Origin: a virus
Length of the DNA: 64,000 nucleotides
Reading direction: 5' to 3' (one strand)
Virus record (IMG/VR): IMGVR_UViG_3300010397_000042
Location: 25,012 to 89,011 of that record
Positions 7,032-33,187 of this stretch are shown here, one piece after another. The notes beneath the pieces were generated by a model, which saw only the letters and a list, made by a program, of their open reading frames with translations, was not told the DNA's origin and made no database searches. Positions within the stretch are counted from its first letter, which is position 1. The number at the start of each line of letters is the position of its first letter. Made by a program: the position numbers and the translations under genes.

Positions 7032-7226
7032 ATGGAACGATCTTATGTAATCGTAGACGCAAACAGTAATCTGTACTGCGGAATGGATCAATGGGAGCCC
7101 GATCTTTCGTTTGCGGCCCGATGGTCAACACTTCGAGGTGCCTGCCAAGCTCTGGACAGGCTTATCTCCGGTTCTGAGAACGACGCAAGACCTTTTCAAA
7201 TCACTAAGTACGTGCCCAAAGGATGA
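7032..7226 (+). CDS. Small hypothetical protein, paralogue of the previous gene
   Basis: 64 residues; ATG follows directly on the previous TAA, with GAGG inside the upstream coding end. Same strand-turn-helix outline as its neighbour. The stop overlaps the primase start (ATGA). Confidence 0.65.
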   Translation: MERSYVIVDANSNLYCGMDQWEPDLSFAARWSTLRGACQALDRLISGSENDARPFQITKYVPKG

Positions 7227-9532
7227 CAGCTACGGCAAACACCGCTCAAAATACATTCGAAATTCTACAACAATGTGTCCAATACCTCGGAGTGGCCATC
7301 CTTCCGCTTTGGGGTCTGGACAAGGAAGGCAACTGCCTCTGTCCAAAGGGGAAGCAGTGTAAGGAATCGCGTAACGCAGGGAAACATCCGTACTCCAAGC
7401 TCTGTCCGAACGGCGTAAAGAACGCCACTCGCGATCTGTCGATCATCCGTCAATGGGTTCGACAAGCGCCCAACTGCAACTGGGGCATTCGCTGCGGCGA
7501 GCCCATTCCCGATGGGGGCTTTCTAGGTGTGTTCGACTGGGATCCTCGTAATGGGTCTGAGGCGAGTCTTGCTGAGATCCGATCGCGCGGCGACATTCTT
7601 CCCGAGACAGTCACTCAGGTCAGTGGCGGTGGCGGCGGCCACCGCTTGTATCGGTTCCCGAAGTCCCCAGCGAGTCGATCCATCGCTCCTGGGTTGGACT
7701 TCCAGGGTGCGGGTAAGTACATCGTTATCAGCCCAAGTAAGCACTATACAGGCGGTGTTTATCTCTGGGAGCTCGGACAAGGTCCTGGTGAGATCAAGGT
7801 AGCCGATGCTCCCGAGTGGCTGATTACTGGCACTGAAGAGGCTCAGGCGCGTCCAGCAGGCGATGGTGGTACCGCTCGAGAGACGGTTTTAGGCGAGGCG
7901 TTCGCGCTCGCCGGTAGGGCAGGCGCCATCATGCCGACGGGCGAGATGTTCGTCGACTGCCCTCATAGCCATTTGCATTCCGATAGCCGAGGCCGAGGTC
8001 AGGACGCGTCGTGTGTGATTCTACCCCCAGCGGGCGGGTCCCGCTTCGGTGGCTTCAAGTGTCAGCATGGCCATTGCGCGAACCTGAAATGGCAAGACGT
8101 CATCAATAGCTTCACAAAGGAGATCCGTGAAGAGGCGTTCAAGAAGTATCCAAGGCTAGGTGCAGTTCCACCCCCTCCCGAAGGTGCACCGGATCAACCC
8201 GAAGAGGAGCTACCCGAAGACGAGCTCCGCGAGATCAAAGAGCGACTCGCCTTCAAGAACACAACCAAGGGATCGAAGATCATCCAGGACATCATCAACC
8301 TGGTGGTGATCCTGAAGTACGATCCCCGGTGGAAGGATGTTCTCAGGTTCGATGAGTTCTCGCAGGTTCTGAGGTTCACCAAAGAGCCCCCATGGCATCC
8401 CGACGACAAGAGCAAAGACCAGACGGACATCTGGACTGATGCCGACGTTACGCGTCTGGATCTCTGGCTTCGTCGAAACTGGGCCCTCGAGCTCCCGAAC
8501 CAGAAGATCCACGAGTGCGTCTACATCGTGGGCCGCGGAAACAGCATCAATCCTCTGAAGGACTACCTCAACGGTTTGGTCTGGGATGGCCAGCCCAGGA
8601 TCGATCGATGGCTCCCCACATACGCAGGCACCAAAGACACCGCCTACACCCAGAGTGCAGGGCGGAAATGGCTCATTTCGGCAGTGGCTCGAGCCTTGGA
8701 TCCCGGCTGTAAGGTCGACCAGCTGATCATTCTCGAGGGTCCCCAAGGGAAAGGAAAGAGTACTTTACTAAGGACTATTACAACCGGCTCTCCAACGACG
8801 GGAGATGGGCCACATGCCGAGTGGTTCAGCGATACGCCCATCCCGATCGGGGAGAAGGATTCTTATGTTGCTCTAAAGGGTAAGTGGATTATCGAGCTAC
8901 CCGAGCTCGCGAGCTTGAAGAAGGCTGACCTCGATCGCGCCAAGGCATTCTTCTCGGCACCGGTGGACTCGTACCGACCTCCCTACGGTCGGGAGAACGT
9001 GTCGGTCCCTCGTACCGCGGTGTTTGCAGGCACGGTCAACCTAGGTGAGTACCTGAATGACGTCACGGGAGCTAGGCGCTTCGTTCCCGTCTTGTGCGGT
9101 GCAATCGACATCGAAACTCTGGCTGCAGACCGAGATCAGATCTGGGCTGAGGCGGTGCACGTCTATAAGGACTGGGTAGCGCAGGGTCGAAAACAGAGTA
9201 GGTGCCTCTGGTGGCCATCGATGGAAGAGATCCCCATGTATGAGGAAGAGCAGCTACGCCGACAGGTGGCAGGCACTCAGCATCCTTGGACAGAAGCGAT
9301 CGCGCTCTGGTTGATGACCGAGAAGGCCCAGACGATGCTCGAGAAGAACGGTTACCTCACGCTTAGGGAGATCGGCATGCATGCGATCAATCTCAGCGAC
9401 AAGGAATGCGATCACAACACGCTGACAGGAATCGGCGGAGTCATGTCAAGGGAGATGAAATGGACGAAGTTGCAAGTACCGAAGGGCGGAGCGAAAGCGT
9501 GGGGCTACAAACCCCCCACCGCAGGCTCCTAG
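7223..9532 (+). CDS. Primase-polymerase / VapE-type helicase fusion, replication protein
   Basis: 769 residues. The N-terminal part (about 15-210) is a bifunctional primase/polymerase (Prim-Pol) domain: FDWDPRNG at 104-110 carries the two metal-binding aspartates and GGGGGHRLYRF the downstream His motif. A Cys/His-rich stretch follows near 245-290. The C-terminal half (about 400-720) matches virulence-associated protein E/D5-like helicases, with Walker A EGPQGKGKS at about 505-513 and acidic ELPEL near 560. It should synthesise primers and unwind DNA at the fork. Coupled to the upstream gene by ATGA. Confidence 0.88.
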   Translation: MTATANTAQNTFEILQQCVQYLGVAILPLWGLDKEGNCLCPKGKQCKESRNAGKHPYSKLCPNGVKNATRDLSIIRQWVRQAPNCNWGIRCGEPIPDGGFLGVFDWDPRNGSEASLAEIRSRGDILPETVTQVSGGGGGHRLYRFPKSPASRSIAPGLDFQGAGKYIVISPSKHYTGGVYLWELGQGPGEIKVADAPEWLITGTEEAQARPAGDGGTARETVLGEAFALAGRAGAIMPTGEMFVDCPHSHLHSDSRGRGQDASCVILPPAGGSRFGGFKCQHGHCANLKWQDVINSFTKEIREEAFKKYPRLGAVPPPPEGAPDQPEEELPEDELREIKERLAFKNTTKGSKIIQDIINLVVILKYDPRWKDVLRFDEFSQVLRFTKEPPWHPDDKSKDQTDIWTDADVTRLDLWLRRNWALELPNQKIHECVYIVGRGNSINPLKDYLNGLVWDGQPRIDRWLPTYAGTKDTAYTQSAGRKWLISAVARALDPGCKVDQLIILEGPQGKGKSTLLRTITTGSPTTGDGPHAEWFSDTPIPIGEKDSYVALKGKWIIELPELASLKKADLDRAKAFFSAPVDSYRPPYGRENVSVPRTAVFAGTVNLGEYLNDVTGARRFVPVLCGAIDIETLAADRDQIWAEAVHVYKDWVAQGRKQSRCLWWPSMEEIPMYEEEQLRRQVAGTQHPWTEAIALWLMTEKAQTMLEKNGYLTLREIGMHAINLSDKECDHNTLTGIGGVMSREMKWTKLQVPKGGAKAWGYKPPTAGS

Positions 9533-27441: not shown

Positions 27442-27897
27442 TTATGCCCATTCGACGTAGTCTGCTTCGAGTTGCGCTAGCGTGCGTGTTTCATCGTTGA
27501 TCCGACGTGTCAGACTAGCGATCGTGCTCTGGATCGATTCACGTCGCTTCTCGAGCACGCTGGGTACCGGCTTACCGAGGTACCGACGGAAGAAATCGGT
27601 AGCCGTGAAGCGCCGTCCATCCATGGTTTCCAGTCCCTCAATACTCTCATTCCGGCCTGAGAAGGATCGAAGTACCCAGCACTGCTTTCCGACCATGTCA
27701 TCGAGCTTGTTCACTCGAAACAGAGCGCAGATCTCTCTGGTCCACTGCTCTCGGAATTCGTTCAGTACATAGCCACCGAAGGCTTGAAAGCACCCTTCGG
27801 TGAGTCTGATTCCGATAAACATGGTATCGAACCGTCCATCGCAGTCGTCATCTTTGATGTAATCGATGGTTCCGTGCTCACGATGTTGCTTTTTCAT
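27442..27897 (-). CDS. Hypothetical protein with C-terminal coiled coil
   Basis: 151 residues; beta-rich N-terminal half, then a coiled coil (about 105-151). ATG overlaps the SLOG gene's stop. No family recognised. Confidence 0.65.
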   Translation of the reverse strand: MKKQHREHGTIDYIKDDDCDGRFDTMFIGIRLTEGCFQAFGGYVLNEFREQWTREICALFRVNKLDDMVGKQCWVLRSFSGRNESIEGLETMDGRRFTATDFFRRYLGKPVPSVLEKRRESIQSTIASLTRRINDETRTLAQLEADYVEWA

Positions 27898-28289
27898 GAT
27901 CCGAACTCCACAAGTCGAACGGGAATGCCCTTCTCTCGAGCCTTCTTGACGGTGTCCATGGTGCCTCCTGTCTTTCCATCCCAGAACGCGAGCACGTAAT
28001 CGACCCCCGAGTTCACCATCTGAGTGTTCCTCATCGGGCCGGCTTTCTTCCCGTAGGTGTTCCAGTCGGCAAGAAAGACCTCCGTTGAGAACCCCATTTC
28101 CTTAGCCACACCGTCGGCAAACATGTCCGCACCGCTCTCCAGTACCTGCTTTCTTCGAACCATCTTGTACTTTCCCTGTCCTCCATGGACGATCGTGACG
28201 CCCTCTTCAGGAAGCGTTTCGAACTCACGCCTCATGACGGGTAGATGCTTCTCGCGGAACGTTCGGGACCCGCAAACAAGTACTCTCAT
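27894..28289 (-). CDS. SLOG/YspA-like (DUF2493-type) nucleotide-binding protein
   Basis: 131 residues, Rossmann-like. MRVLVCGSRTF at the start, VTIVHGGQG as the glycine turn, VFLADWNTYGKKAGPMRN and VLAFWDGKTGGTMDTV are the SLOG/DprA-like nucleotide-binding motifs. SLOG domains bind or process nucleotide-derived ligands and occur in several immune and anti-immune proteins. It is coupled to the gene after the Acb2-like protein. Confidence 0.8.
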   Translation of the reverse strand: MRVLVCGSRTFREKHLPVMRREFETLPEEGVTIVHGGQGKYKMVRRKQVLESGADMFADGVAKEMGFSTEVFLADWNTYGKKAGPMRNTQMVNSGVDYVLAFWDGKTGGTMDTVKKAREKGIPVRLVEFGS

Positions 28290-28519
28290 GCTCGAGCCAG
28301 CCGATCGAAGTGAATTTGAGCCTCATCCAGAGCGAATTTGGCCTTCTTCAACAACTCAACTCGAAGTCGCGCCACTGCTTCCTCAGGCGAATCGGCCACG
28401 ACGACCTTGTGAACTGCCCCAGGAAGCACCGTTCCAGCACTCCACTTGCCCCCGTTGATGCAAAAAGTGACCGTACTCGCCGGAAAAGCATTCAAAATAG
28501 CCCTAATATCGTCGTTCAT
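28286..28519 (-). CDS. Small hypothetical protein
   Basis: 77 residues from ATG at 28519, coupled to the Acb2-like stop. Short beta domain (TVTFCINGGKWSAGTV), then a helix. No family recognised; lies between two predicted nucleotide-binding proteins. Confidence 0.6.
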   Translation of the reverse strand: MNDDIRAILNAFPASTVTFCINGGKWSAGTVLPGAVHKVVVADSPEEAVARLRVELLKKAKFALDEAQIHFDRLARA

Positions 28520-28725
28520 GCTTGGTACTCGGGGCACATCGACATTGCCTTCTTCGCGTAGAAGCAGGCTTCTTCCATCTTCGTTCGACAGAGACTCAGC
28601 TCCCTCGACTCCACGGTAAGAGCTCGTAGAAGTCCTTCCAGCATCAGATCGAACCCTTGTGCGATTTGCTTGGCTCGTTCTTGCCCTTGCTCATTCAACA
28701 TGTGTACTTCAAATTCCTTATTCAT
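28516..28725 (-). CDS. Probable Acb2/Tad1-hairpin type cyclic-nucleotide sponge
   Basis: 69 residues. The C-terminal half (SRELSLCRTKMEEACFYAKK) matches the helical hairpin of the Acb2/Tad1 family (R-E-x-S-L-x-x-T-K-x-E-E-A-x-x-x-A-x-K-A), and the N-terminal helix NEQGQERAKQIAQGFDLML also fits; size is typical. Acb2 binds cyclic di- and trinucleotides made by CBASS and so blocks host defence. Assignment is from remembered family pattern, without alignment. Confidence 0.72.
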   Translation of the reverse strand: MNKEFEVHMLNEQGQERAKQIAQGFDLMLEGLLRALTVESRELSLCRTKMEEACFYAKKAMSMCPEYQA

Positions 28726-28913
28726 TTAGCAGGCACCTCTCCGTTCCCATCACACCAATCGCAGTCAATCCATCCGAAACCCTGACACTCCTCGCACTCC
28801 CCAACCTCTTCGTCGTCAGGATGCGTGTCCGCGTCACCCGAGCCCCCGCAGTTCCAGCAGATGATGGTCCCATCGCCATCGCACTCTGGGCATTCATCGT
28901 AAATCTCGTCCAT
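28722..28913 (-). CDS. Stand-alone DnaJ-type zinc-finger protein
   Basis: 63 residues with four CxxCxGxG-like repeats (CPECDGDG, CWNCGGSG, CEECQGFG, CDWCDGNG), binding two zinc ions in DnaJ. No J domain is present. Such free modules occur in phages and small chaperone-like proteins. Very acidic. Confidence 0.8.
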   Translation of the reverse strand: MDEIYDECPECDGDGTIICWNCGGSGDADTHPDDEEVGECEECQGFGWIDCDWCDGNGEVPAK

Positions 28914-29103
28914 TTCTCATAAGCTCCATAATGTCTTGTTCAAGCTCCCCGATCTTGCGATCTAAAACACGAATAATCCGAGCCAAATCTCGAGATTTGG
29001 GTGGAATCTTGTCGTTCCAAGCAGACTCGATCTCCAATTCCCGTGCTCGCTTGACGATGTCTTCCCAATCCCAGTCATCAACCGGATCCCAACGCTCGGT
29101 CAT
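28894..29103 (-). CDS. Small hypothetical coiled-coil protein
   Basis: 69 residues. Acidic Trp-rich N-terminus (ERWDPVDDWDWEDIV), Arg/Glu helix. Overlaps its neighbour by 20 bases. No family recognised. Confidence 0.6.
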   Translation of the reverse strand: MTERWDPVDDWDWEDIVKRARELEIESAWNDKIPPKSRDLARIIRVLDRKIGELEQDIMELMRNGRDLR

Positions 29104-29498
29104 TCGAAGAACACCGAGGGGGTCGGATTGCCGTTTTGGATCCGAATCCAGCTCAAAAGCTCCCGCTTCCGGTCGCTCCCCAGCGCCGCCTGAAGCAGAA
29201 TCCGCTCCTCATGGGAGCGCACCGGTCGATTGAGATACACAATGACGTGTCGATGTGGGAGTCCGCTTTTGGAAGGAATGGCGCCGTATCCAAACACGTA
29301 TCCAGCTTGGCTCAGTACCGTGTAGTGTCTCAAAAACACCCCGAAGTCCTCTTCCGTATCGATATCGATGAAGAGTTCGTGCTCTGCTGGTTCCACAACC
29401 TGCTGTCCGGCTCCGGCAGCACACACCTTTTGAAAATCCTGACTGAAGTAGTCATCCAACGACGGTGCCTTGCGCACTTCCATGCAGAGTTTAGTCAT
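29100..29498 (-). CDS. Hypothetical protein resembling a small AEP-type domain
   Basis: 132 residues. FIDIDTEEDFG (43-53) looks like motif I (hDhD) of archaeo-eukaryotic primases, and SKSGLPHRHVIVYL (77-90) like motif II (sxH). No zinc motif or helicase. If correct it would be a minimal primase-like nucleotidyltransferase, separate from the 769-residue replicase. Alternatively an unnamed phage family. Confidence 0.5.
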   Translation of the reverse strand: MTKLCMEVRKAPSLDDYFSQDFQKVCAAGAGQQVVEPAEHELFIDIDTEEDFGVFLRHYTVLSQAGYVFGYGAIPSKSGLPHRHVIVYLNRPVRSHEERILLQAALGSDRKRELLSWIRIQNGNPTPSVFFE

Positions 29499-29728
29499 AA
29501 TGTCCTCTTAGCTTTGAGCTTGGTAAGCCGGCATTCCAGATCTGCAATCTGCTTTTCGATCTCACCGCATTTGAAACAAGTCCAGACACCATCTACCTCG
29601 ATTTCCGATTTCGTAGCGTCATCTAGACCCTCCTCGTAAGAACCAATCGCCTTATGTCCACACGAGAGCACGGGAAACCACTGACGTGGCGGCTGATAAT
29701 CGGCCCAGTCTATGATCTTGACCTTCAT
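29495..29728 (-). CDS. Small zinc-binding hypothetical protein
   Basis: 77 residues from ATG at 29728, coupled to the gene upstream. LSCGHK and CFKCGE could bind one zinc; the C-terminus is a coiled coil. The longer frame to 29779 is shadow. Confidence 0.6.
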   Translation of the reverse strand: MKVKIIDWADYQPPRQWFPVLSCGHKAIGSYEEGLDDATKSEIEVDGVWTCFKCGEIEKQIADLECRLTKLKAKRTL

Positions 29729-30087
29729 AGAAAACGCTCCACTCGACGCTGTTCTGGCGTCACTAGATCCCCATACCAAATCTCAACCTCATCGAGTGCC
29801 ACCCAGTGCTCGATTCCGTGAACTGGCACTCGTAATCCAGGCACCTGACTGTGAACATCGTAGGAATGCCCATGGTCGTAGACCCTACGGGTCTCAGTTC
29901 GGATGGAGATCAGTTCGAAGGTTGCGACTCCATTCGGCCATTGCACCATAACGACATCCCCATCCTCGAAGATGAGTCCGTATCGAACGTTGGCCGTCTT
30001 GTCCGGACCCAGCCCGAATCCTGGAAGGGAGAAGTAGATGTTTCCCCAGTCATCATGCCGCTCAAGTTTGATGTATTGATGGCTCAT
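29725..30087 (-). CDS. Hypothetical beta-rich protein
   Basis: 120 residues from ATG at 30087 (MSHQYIKLERHDDWGNIYF). No family recognised. Confidence 0.65.
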   Translation of the reverse strand: MSHQYIKLERHDDWGNIYFSLPGFGLGPDKTANVRYGLIFEDGDVVMVQWPNGVATFELISIRTETRRVYDHGHSYDVHSQVPGLRVPVHGIEHWVALDEVEIWYGDLVTPEQRRVERFL

Positions 30088-30383
30088 CGACCATCCCATC
30101 GGAAGCGTTCCATGACCGTCCTAGCCTTTGAAATGGAACCCCATACGATCAGGTTGTAGACGTCGCTAATGAGTTCCTGCGCTCGCCAACGCATTAGCGC
30201 CAGCTCATCGCGTTCTTTCCGCAGCTCCTCATTCTCAGCCCTCAGAACCTCGAGCTCCTGCTCGTAGGAGGCCTTGATTGACGAAACAGCAGCTCCGGCC
30301 ACCGCTCCAACAGCCTCATTGAGATCCTTCCACGGATCCTGCTGGGGCTGCCTCCAGTTTGAAATCCAATCTCTAATACTCAC
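30084..30383 (-). CDS. Coiled-coil hypothetical protein
   Basis: 99 residues; a long coiled coil (about 38-75, SYEQELEVLRAENEELRKER). No family recognised. Confidence 0.65.
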   Translation of the reverse strand: MSIRDWISNWRQPQQDPWKDLNEAVGAVAGAAVSSIKASYEQELEVLRAENEELRKERDELALMRWRAQELISDVYNLIVWGSISKARTVMERFRWDGR

Positions 30384-30610
30384 GACTGAGATCTCCAGGA
30401 CTGAAGGGCGTCTCGCATGGCCACCAAGTAGGCCTCAACGGCTACGACCTCGGCCTCGAACATCGTCTCACACGGAACCCAGTTTCTCGCCGTCTGTACC
30501 AAGACTCGAGCCTGAGCGAGCTCCTCCGGTGAGGTTCGCCAGAACCTGAACGTGAGCGATAACTCACCCGGTTGCTCGGCGTCATCATCATGCCAATCGA
30601 TCCGAATCAT
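30380..30610 (-). CDS. Small hypothetical protein
   Basis: 76 residues; acidic N-terminus, helical rest. Coupled both sides. Confidence 0.6.
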   Translation of the reverse strand: MIRIDWHDDDAEQPGELSLTFRFWRTSPEELAQARVLVQTARNWVPCETMFEAEVVAVEAYLVAMRDALQSWRSQS

Positions 30611-30825
30611 CGTCCGTATTCTGCCTCCTCGGCAGCTTGTTGGAGTTGCTCACCAAGCATTCGAGCGATGTCGCACGTGAGAGTTTGACCGGTTCCTCCG
30701 ATGCTCAGGTGAACCTGTTTTCCCTCCTCATTCCACGTGAGCTTGATATCTTCGAACATCCAAACAGCGCTTCTTTCCATTGCAGGCACCCTCTCTATTT
30801 CTCCCGGCGTTCGATATGCACTCAT
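30607..30825 (-). CDS. Small hypothetical protein
   Basis: 72 residues; short beta sheet (VHLSIGGTGQTLTCDI) and a C-terminal helix. No family recognised. Confidence 0.6.
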   Translation of the reverse strand: MSAYRTPGEIERVPAMERSAVWMFEDIKLTWNEEGKQVHLSIGGTGQTLTCDIARMLGEQLQQAAEEAEYGR

Positions 30826-31073
30826 AGCTTCAGAACCTCCTCAGCTTCCTCCGCGATGTCGGAGAGCTCGAGGATGATTTCTGCGGCATCATCGCCATGC
30901 CAACTCAGATGGACCAACCTCTCCAGAATCTCTTCCATCGCTTCGTATTTCTCTCGGTTCATTTCGTAGTCCTTATAAAACGGGTCCCCGGAGCCGTAGC
31001 TCCGGGAAATCCCTAATCTGAAGAAGAGAAGAACCCATAAGGCCAAAAGAGAGACATTGAGAACCTTGTCCAC
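30822..31073 (-). CDS. Small membrane-anchored protein
   Basis: 83 residues; N-terminal TM helix (LNVSLLALWVLLFFRLGI), acidic helical C-terminus. Overlaps the next upstream gene by 61 bases. Confidence 0.6.
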   Translation of the reverse strand: MDKVLNVSLLALWVLLFFRLGISRSYGSGDPFYKDYEMNREKYEAMEEILERLVHLSWHGDDAAEIILELSDIAEEAEEVLKL

Positions 31074-31252
31074 GCTTGCATGACCTCGGGACTGGACTTC
31101 AGCCCCTTGAACTGCTCGAGGACTTCAGCTCCCACAAGATTCCAGACATCCTCCCAGGAATCCCATCGTCCCATCATCCAAAGAGGACAGAACCATGTGA
31201 GTACCGACAGTCCGGAATAGAAGAAGATAAGCGAAGCGATAAAGCTAACCAT
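31013..31252 (-). CDS. Small membrane protein
   Basis: 79 residues from ATG at 31252; N-terminal hydrophobic stretch of about 30 residues with many aromatics, then a soluble region and an aromatic tail. No family recognised. Confidence 0.55.
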   Translation of the reverse strand: MVSFIASLIFFYSGLSVLTWFCPLWMMGRWDSWEDVWNLVGAEVLEQFKGLKSSPEVMQAWTRFSMSLFWPYGFFSSSD

Positions 31253-31604
31253 TGATAAGCTCCAACAGGTCACCCATCGCCACGTCACGATCCAAACAAC
31301 GAAACTCGATCTTCAGGCCGTATTCCATCGCCGTTCGAAACGCATACCTCATCCCACCACTCACGCCTCGATCGAGATAGAACGCCACCACGTCGGCAAA
31401 CTCACGCCACGCGAATCCAGCCTGGATGCCCTGCTGTCGCTCATCAAACACCGCGTCATTGAGAATACCCTGTTGCGTGTACAGTAGATGACTCGCAAAC
31501 GGTGCTTCCTTGCGGTTGAGGCAATCCTTCATACACTTTCGAGCGTATGCGACGTTTGCCGTAACCTCGCCCTCATACGGAGATTCGATAACTACCAGCC
31601 GCAC
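31245..31604 (-). CDS. Nucleoside deoxyribosyltransferase-like (SLOG-related) protein
   Basis: 119 residues from GTG 31604 with GGAG 8 bases ahead; the longer frame to 31667 is shadow. LVVIESPYEGEV, NVAYARKCMKDCLNRKEAPFASHLLYTQ and AFYLDRGVSGGMRYAF match an unnamed phage family with a deoxyribosyltransferase/SLOG-like Rossmann fold. Likely binds a nucleotide derivative. Confidence 0.65.
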   Translation of the reverse strand: MRLVVIESPYEGEVTANVAYARKCMKDCLNRKEAPFASHLLYTQQGILNDAVFDERQQGIQAGFAWREFADVVAFYLDRGVSGGMRYAFRTAMEYGLKIEFRCLDRDVAMGDLLELING

Positions 31605-31984
31605 TTCTCGGACTCCTCGATCTCCATGTCCATGAGCTTGCGACAGAACTTGAGATCCGTTGTGCATCTGAAGTCGGTAAACTGACGACGAGCCTCGAAC
31701 TCGGCGACCGGTCCGTCGTCGTAGTGACTCAGGATGACGGCCTGGTTTGCGTTCGCCGTGACGTCGTCGGTAAGCAAGACCTTGCGGATGTCCTCGGCGA
31801 GCTTGAGTACCTGCTCGAGACGAGCCATCTTCTCATCCTCGTTCCAGAGTTCGGAAGTCGCCCAGAGCAACATGTGTCCAAGCTGCTTCTTGAGGATTCG
31901 TGATCTCAAGTCGTGAACTTGCTGATCCTCTTCCAGCTTCAGCAACGCACCCGACCAACCCTCTACGTACTTCGGCTCAGACAT
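31592..31984 (-). CDS. Hypothetical protein
   Basis: 130 residues from ATG at 31984 (MSEPKYVEGWSGALLKLEED), overlapping the stop upstream. Helical. The longer frame to 32095 is shadow. Confidence 0.65.
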   Translation of the reverse strand: MSEPKYVEGWSGALLKLEEDQQVHDLRSRILKKQLGHMLLWATSELWNEDEKMARLEQVLKLAEDIRKVLLTDDVTANANQAVILSHYDDGPVAEFEARRQFTDFRCTTDLKFCRKLMDMEIEESEKCGW

Positions 31985-32369
31985 TCTGCTCCTCCACGAA
32001 CTTCCTAATGTGAGCCGCGACCTCACGAGCGGTCGCATCCTCACCGAGTCGGCCGTCGGCGTAGTTGTTTGGAATGAAGAGCCGCAAGTACTCACTTATT
32101 GAGAGTCCAAAGATCCTCTCTGCGACCTCTACAGCTCCGGAATTCTCGTTGTCTGCCATCCTGGGCATGACTCCTCTGAACTCGTCTGGAACCAGAGTGG
32201 CACCCAGCTTCTGGAACTCTGGCATCGAGCAAGCCCAACCCAGTGCACAAGCGGTGGTCCCGCAACCACCCTCGAACCAGTCATCGGACGCCCAACTCGC
32301 GTAATTGAACCTCTCTGGTGGAAGATCATCCAGAAAGTCAGCCAATCTAAGCAATCGTTCTTTATTCAT
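31977..32369 (-). CDS. Hypothetical protein of a common phage type
   Basis: 130 residues. RLLRLADFLDDLPPERFNYASW and CGTTACALGWACSMPEF resemble a short family seen in many phages (CGTxxCALGWA motif), function unknown. Coupled to the gene above. Confidence 0.65.
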   Translation of the reverse strand: MNKERLLRLADFLDDLPPERFNYASWASDDWFEGGCGTTACALGWACSMPEFQKLGATLVPDEFRGVMPRMADNENSGAVEVAERIFGLSISEYLRLFIPNNYADGRLGEDATAREVAAHIRKFVEEQNV

Positions 32370-33158: not shown

Positions 33159-33187
33159 ATTCTAGCACTAAACTCAGAGTGTGTCAA
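33159..33187 (-). promoter_or_regulatory. Leaderless-type promoter of the long operon
   Basis: Leftward TTGACA, 17-base spacer starting CACTCTGAGT, TAGAAT with TGC extension. Perfect core match. Confidence 0.8.

What the first reader, a model, noticed from the sequence alone, without database searches (positions are those of the whole stretch)
27894..31604. Cluster of nucleotide-signal proteins beside the Acb2-like gene
Within 3.7 kb lie a SLOG/YspA-like protein (27894), the Acb2-like protein (28516), an AEP-like protein (29100) and a deoxyribosyltransferase/SLOG-like protein (31245), all in one coupled operon. SLOG domains bind NAD/ADPR-type or cyclic signals in several immune systems, so the small unknowns between them (28286, 28894, 29495-30825) are good candidates for new counter-defence genes.
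Basis: inference. Interest (0 to 1): 0.7.

Follow-up and report, generated by a model that had tools for sequence, protein, structure and literature searches.

The report
Phage early operon with signal sponge
A soil phage carries, in an ordinary operon of small early genes, a member of a known family of proteins that soak up bacterial alarm molecules, but the genes around it do not form a recurring anti-immunity cluster.

Summary
The four named genes are real. 27894-28289(-) is a YspA/YAcAr-type SLOG protein. 28516-28725(-) is an Acb2-family protein. 31245-31604(-) is DUF7768, which resembles nucleoside deoxyribosyltransferases. 29100-29498(-) belongs to an apparently undescribed family of small phage proteins with primase-like (AEP) motifs; I collected 34 members.

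The Acb2 call is the strong one. Its predicted fold superposes on solved "Acb2 homolog 43" (9ptq; Z 9.4, 1.0 Å over 64 residues). That homolog was solved with 3'cADPR, a Thoeris signal. The likeliest function is therefore a nucleotide sponge, against Thoeris at least as plausibly as CBASS.

The wider reading, a nucleotide-signal cluster whose small unknowns are counter-defence genes, is not supported. In 50 Acb2-bearing virus records, SLOG and DUF7768 genes are no commoner than in 47 controls (2/50 vs 2/47; 1/50 vs 1/47). Only one of 61 Acb2 loci has a SLOG within 5 kb. Relatives of the AEP-like gene lie near DNA polymerase in 6 of 34 loci, and cultured-phage SLOG genes are often annotated as DprA-like. 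A strong terminator-like hairpin separates DUF7768 from the rest. The operon is mosaic, with one good counter-defence gene.

The parts
28516..28725 (-). Acb2-family nucleotide-signal sponge (69 aa)
   Evidence: PF24729 over cut-off; 77 IMG/VR relatives; 52-member profile hits PDB 9ptq 'Acb2 homolog 43' E 1.9e-15; AF2 pLDDT 95.9; VIA Z 9.4, rmsd 1.0 over 64 residues to 9ptq, solved with 3'cADPR
27894..28289 (-). YspA/YAcAr-type SLOG protein (131 aa) with an insertion of about 13 residues before the GAD motif
   Evidence: PF10686 31.5 bits vs cut-off 28.2; phrog_289 E 2e-22; 1178 cultured phages carry relatives; motifs in alignment A5
29100..29498 (-). small AEP-like protein (132 aa) of an apparently undescribed phage family
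   Evidence: 34-member alignment with invariant D45, D47, S76, H84; AF2 pLDDT 91 with an RRM-like beta-alpha-beta-beta-alpha fold; weak Prim-Pol and LigD Prim-Pol matches of members; profile comparison with phage Prim-Pol domains aligns D-x-D and (S)G..H in register, E 0.005
31245..31604 (-). DUF7768 protein, nucleoside-deoxyribosyltransferase-like (GTG start at 31604)
   Evidence: PF24963 E 6e-28; phrog_355 E 4e-20; start matched to homologues
28286..28519 (-). small unknown protein between Acb2-like and SLOG (77 aa from ATG 28519)
   Evidence: ATGA overlaps on both sides; no family match above cut-off
28722..28913 (-). zinc-ribbon protein with four CxxC-type motifs (DnaJ/anti-TRAP-like)
   Evidence: anti-TRAP PF15777 E 1e-5 and DnaJ_CXXCXGXG E 6e-5, both below curated cut-offs; NF058604 below cut-off
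28894..29103 (-). small unknown protein (69 aa)
   Evidence: no family match above cut-off
30963..31012 (-). terminator- or attenuator-like hairpin in the one clear gap of the cluster
   Evidence: -25 kcal/mol, z -3.9, 1 of 200 shuffles as stable
33159..33187 (-). sigma-70-like promoter TTGACA-17-TAGAAT with TG before the -10, upstream of the operon
   Evidence: 11 of 12 consensus positions; a consensus match only

Best explanation
This is an ordinary phage early/accessory operon of small genes with one clear counter-defence gene. The 69-residue Acb2-family protein most likely folds as a helical hairpin, assembles into an oligomer, and sequesters a nucleotide alarm signal during infection, so that the host effector is never switched on. 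Because its nearest solved relative was crystallised with 3'cADPR, a TIR-derived (Thoeris) signal is at least as likely a ligand as CBASS cyclic di- or trinucleotides. The SLOG, DUF7768 and AEP-like genes are separate acquisitions with nucleotide-binding or replication roles, not parts of one immune-evasion system. Shown here: family membership, fold, and lack of neighbourhood association. Inferred: ligand, assembly and anti-defence effect.
For: Pfam Acb2_Tad1_hairpin above cut-off. Profile match to PDB 9ptq, E 5e-11 with 5 sequences and 1.9e-15 with 52. AF2 pLDDT 95.9, short N-terminal helix plus two long antiparallel helices, as described for Acb2 (PMC12043709). VIA: 9ptq Z 9.4, rmsd 1.0 over 64 residues; T4 Vs.4 with cGAMP Z 6.6; Acb2 8h2x/8h2j Z 6.4/6.3. 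Neighbours not associated: SLOG 2/50 vs 2/47 controls, DUF7768 1/50 vs 1/47, both Fisher p = 1. Closest Acb2 loci share no other operon gene. The AEP-like family is near DNA polymerase in 6 of 34 loci.
Against: No ligand or oligomer could be tested. The match to the canonical Acb2 of T4 is weak in sequence (E 0.5). Z values of 6 to 7 for helical hairpins may be unspecific; only 9ptq stands out. One Acb2 phage (L025) does carry a SLOG 1.1 kb upstream of its Acb2 gene, so some pairing cannot be excluded. The association test can only rule out rates above about 14% for SLOG and 11% for DUF7768.
Confidence: 0.72

Rival explanations
1. Dedicated counter-signalling island: the Acb2-like sponge, the SLOG (as decoy or hydrolase of cADPR-type signals) and DUF7768 act together against NAD/ADPR-based immunity, and the small unknowns are further anti-defence genes.
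For: All three families are nucleotide or ADPR-related. 3'cADPR is the ligand in 9ptq, and SLOG domains of Thoeris effectors sense such signals. Iyer and colleagues predict that viral SLOG domains degrade or sense cADPR-like signals (PMC9503650). Anti-CBASS genes are said to lie in anti-defence islands (PMC11722364). L025 has a SLOG 1.1 kb from its Acb2 gene.
Against: No enrichment of SLOG or DUF7768 in Acb2 phages. Terminator-like hairpin between DUF7768 and the rest. No Macro, NADAR or Nudix gene, the SLOG partners reported in PMC9503650, appears among the operon proteins scanned.
Confidence: 0.12
2. The SLOG gene is a DprA-like ssDNA/nucleotide-binding protein of the phage DNA-processing machinery and has nothing to do with immunity; the AEP-like protein is a replication or repair accessory.
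For: Relatives in cultured phages are often annotated DprA-like; in Mycobacterium phage Bowtie the relative lies between MazG and endonuclease VII/primase genes. AEP-like relatives lie near family-A DNA polymerase in 6 of 34 loci and a primase/helicase-like gene in 3. Five of 34 end in PF, three with an SSB-like DIPF tip.
Against: The annotations are names, not tests. SLOG subfamilies differ widely in ligand. The window protein itself has no SSB-like tail.
Confidence: 0.45
3. The Acb2-like protein has lost or changed ligand and is no longer a sponge.
For: Sequence divergence from T4 Acb2. The position aligned with the T4 base-stacking Phe82 (PMC12657218) is not aromatic here, though the alignment is weak.
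Against: Strong conservation over 52 relatives, with F5, L10, G14, R41, T48, E51, F55 and K59 invariant; near-perfect superposition on the ligand-bound homolog 43.
Confidence: 0.15

Closest known systems
Acb2 homolog 43 (PDB 9ptq, in complex with 3'cADPR)
   Same: Same fold (Z 9.4, rmsd 1.0 over 64 residues, 34% identity), same RE.S...TK.EEA.F.A.KA core
   Different: About two thirds of residues differ; ligand contacts could not be compared; the source paper is not held
Acb2 of phages T4 (Vs.4, 7uq2) and PaP2 (8h2j)
   Same: Short N-terminal helix plus helical hairpin; Z 6.3-6.6
   Different: Only a weak sequence match for T4 (E 0.5) and none for 8h2j; the window protein is about 20 residues shorter
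Tad1
   Same: Shares the hairpin Pfam family PF24729
   Different: No N-terminal beta-sheet here (Tad1 description in PMC12043709)
YAcAr/YspA SLOG proteins of cultured phages (e.g. Mycobacterium phage Bowtie gp64)
   Same: 38% identity over 98% of the protein, core motifs shared
   Different: Insertion of about 13 residues between the HGG and GAD motifs here
Prim-Pol / archaeo-eukaryotic primase (AEP) domains, including the window's own primase-helicase at 7223-9532
   Same: D-x-D and (S)G..H motifs in the same order and register
   Different: Stand-alone 105-190 residues, no N-terminal extension or C-terminal helicase part; own LQA.LGSD..RE signature; no significant match to a solved AEP fold

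Membership tests
Acb2 sponge family | matches the Acb2/Tad1 hairpin family above its curated cut-off | tested here: met
   PF24729 28.1 bits vs 27
[quoted passage not shown]
   AF2 pLDDT 95.9, helices 12-35 and 41-62; 9ptq Z 9.4, rmsd 1.0
Acb2 sponge family | ligand-contact residues (e.g. aromatic residues that stack on the base) | tested here: inconclusive
   contacts of 9ptq not available; the alignment to T4 Acb2 is too weak to place them
Acb2 sponge family | hexamer that binds nucleotide immune signals | not testable with these tools
   needs purified protein
Tad1 | N-terminal antiparallel beta-sheet before the hairpin | tested here: not met
   no such sheet in the 69-residue model; Tad1 description from PMC12043709
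YAcAr (YspA-like) SLOG | matches PF10686 above its curated cut-off, with GSR, HGG, GAD, DW..YGK.AG..RN and GT motifs | tested here: met
   31.5 bits vs 28.2; alignment A5
YAcAr (YspA-like) SLOG | binds or cleaves ADPR-type signals | not testable with these tools
   predicted in PMC9503650, not shown for this clade
Nucleoside 2-deoxyribosyltransferase / DUF7768 | matches DUF7768 above its curated cut-off | tested here: met
   97.4 bits vs 26
Nucleoside 2-deoxyribosyltransferase / DUF7768 | catalytic glutamate of true deoxyribosyltransferases | tested here: inconclusive
   the D.G.S.GM motif of the aligned members shows no conserved Glu at the place I would expect from memory; no structural alignment was made
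AEP (Prim-Pol) | motif I hhDhD | tested here: met
   D45 and D47 invariant in 34 members and not part of the search pattern
AEP (Prim-Pol) | motif II with Ser and His on the next hairpin | tested here: met
   S76 and H84 invariant, not part of the search pattern; in register with Prim-Pol
AEP (Prim-Pol) | motif III aspartate | tested here: inconclusive
   D109 is invariant but was fixed by the search pattern
AEP (Prim-Pol) | AEP fold | tested here: inconclusive
   confident RRM-like model, but Foldseek gives only generic ferredoxin-like matches, with the LigD polymerase domain at rank 25, E 0.17

The most novel reading that the evidence does not exclude
The Acb2-like protein and the SLOG form a two-part anti-Thoeris device: the first sequesters 3'cADPR, the second binds or cleaves the same signal. 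(Independently, the AEP-like gene belongs to an undescribed, widespread family of stand-alone minimal AEP proteins in phages, which I hold more likely than not.)
Probability: 0.1. Interest if true: 0.65.

Novelty: new member of a known kind. Interest (0 to 1): 0.38.

Why it matters
It places a divergent environmental branch of the Acb2 family, almost absent from cultured phages, next to a structure solved with a Thoeris signal, so ligand choice across the family becomes directly testable. It also shows that reading counter-defence function from the neighbours of an Acb2 gene would mislead here, and it brings out an uncharacterised family of small AEP-like phage proteins.

Tried and rejected
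Close relatives of the whole region: none by megablast in cultured phages; terminase relatives are at most 40% identical, so direct synteny could not be tested and family co-occurrence was used instead. The AEP-like protein alone found no relatives by tblastn or scan; a weak hit in Acinetobacter phages ran antisense to the annotated gene and was dropped as chance. A scan with a degenerate motif (LQA.LGSD..RE.L) solved this; conservation of those motif positions is therefore by construction and is not used as evidence. Pfam YAcAr alone missed the SLOG next to Acb2 in L025 (below cut-off), so I rebuilt a profile and repeated the test. SLOG in AEP-like phages, 3/31 vs 1/47, is not significant (p 0.3) and none lies within 5 kb. 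The fold match of the AEP-like model to archaeal-virus proteins (BFVD E 1e-4) was not followed. The preprint that appears to describe Acb2 homologues (Hadary 2025) is not held; its link to 9ptq is my guess.
Full report
What the window is. It is 64 kb of an 89,011-base IMG/VR virus record. It carries terminase, portal and tail sheath genes, so it is a contractile-tailed phage, with ribonucleotide reductase, RNA ligase, helicase and a primase-helicase. It has no close relative in cultured phages over the 8 kb searched, and terminase relatives are at most 40% identical.

The genes named in the finding exist. On the minus strand, from about 33187 down to 26610, lies a run of small genes, mostly joined by 4-base ATGA overlaps. 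A strong sigma-70-like promoter lies at 33187-33159 and another at 33719-33692. One clear break exists: 31012-30963 holds a hairpin of -25 kcal/mol (z -3.9) followed by GUUUUAU. It separates the DUF7768 gene and its neighbour at 31013 from the AEP-like, Acb2-like and SLOG genes, so they may not be one transcript.

The Acb2-like gene. Pfam PF24729 is matched just above its cut-off, but the family evidence is much stronger than that score. IMG/VR has 77 relatives. A profile of 52 sequences matches PDB 9ptq, 'Acb2 homolog 43', at E 1.9e-15. The AlphaFold2 model has pLDDT 95.9. VIA-align gives 9ptq Z 9.4 with rmsd 1.0 over 64 residues, well above T4 Vs.4 with cGAMP (6.6) and Acb2 8h2x and 8h2j (6.4, 6.3). 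The 9ptq title says it was solved with 3'cADPR, a Thoeris signal. I infer, but cannot show, that the window protein is a sponge, and that a cADPR-type ligand is at least as likely as a CBASS ligand. This branch is almost absent from cultured phages: the window protein found none, and a query with relative L019 found only Streptomyces phage Zuko.

The SLOG gene. It is a YAcAr protein by Pfam with the core motifs and an insertion of about 13 residues. Relatives occur in 1178 of 50,697 cultured-phage records, many annotated DprA-like; in Mycobacterium phage Bowtie the relative lies beside MazG, endonuclease VII and primase genes. Published analysis predicts that viral SLOG domains degrade or sense cADPR-like signals (PMC9503650), but that is a prediction.

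DUF7768. It matches PF24963 and a nucleoside deoxyribosyltransferase PHROG strongly. Its D.G.S.GM motif is conserved. Whether it is an active enzyme is open.

The AEP-like gene. By itself it has no family match and no tblastn relative. A scan of IMG/VR for its C-terminal motif gave 39 stretches, nearly all coding for proteins of the same kind. In a 34-member alignment D45, D47, S76 and H84 are invariant although they were not in the search pattern. Two members match Prim-Pol weakly and one matches LigD Prim-Pol at E 0.003. Profile comparison with eleven phage Prim-Pol domains aligns D-x-D and (S)G..H in register, E 0.005. The model is confident (pLDDT 91) and RRM-like, but fold matches in PDB are generic. 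Within 5 kb, family-A DNA polymerase recurs in 6 of 34 loci and a primase/helicase-like gene in 3. Five members end in PF, three of them in an SSB-like DIPF tip. I read this as a replication or repair accessory built on an AEP-like core.

Is the neighbourhood conserved? I compared 50 Acb2-bearing virus records (2.47 Mb) with 47 control records (2.45 Mb; mostly fetched by an arbitrary 15-base word, plus five distant terminase relatives of this phage). With Pfam, YAcAr above cut-off is 0/50 vs 1/47 and DUF7768 1/50 vs 1/47. The own genome served as a positive control for YAcAr. With a SLOG profile made here the numbers are 2/50 vs 2/47, Fisher p = 1. Comparing window proteins with all ORFs around 61 Acb2 genes found one SLOG nearby (L025, 1.1 kb) and two relatives of the 31977 gene in L006. 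The four closest Acb2 loci share nothing else. Of 31 AEP-like phages, one has Acb2, 22 kb away. So the grouping looks like chance gathering in an accessory-gene operon. The test cannot exclude a modest association.

Judgement. One strong counter-defence gene of a known kind, one apparently undescribed small family probably of replication type, and no support for a counter-signalling island.

Noticed in passing
window 29100-29498(-); relatives L175-L213: Widespread, apparently unnamed family of 105-190 aa phage proteins with DxD...SKSG..H...LQA.LGSD..RE...PTLFFE; three of 34 members end in an SSB-like DIPF tail (DDDIPF in L213).
   Followed up: partly
window 28722-28913(-): Small cysteine-rich protein with four CxxC-type motifs, resembling the DnaJ zinc region and anti-TRAP, below curated cut-offs.
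   Followed up: no
window 30963-31012(-): Very stable hairpin (-25 kcal/mol) in the one clear gap inside the gene cluster, possibly a terminator or attenuator.
   Followed up: partly
window 31977-32369(-); L006: Protein with a CGTTACALGWA motif (phrog_889); two relatives lie 3 to 5 kb from the Acb2 gene of another phage (L006).
   Followed up: no
L025 4878-5324: The one Acb2 phage found with a SLOG gene 1.1 kb upstream of its Acb2 gene.
   Followed up: partly
L197 and L198, contig IMGVR_UViG_3300035445_000042: Both contig ends carry the same AEP-like sequence, which suggests terminal redundancy of that contig rather than two genes.
   Followed up: no
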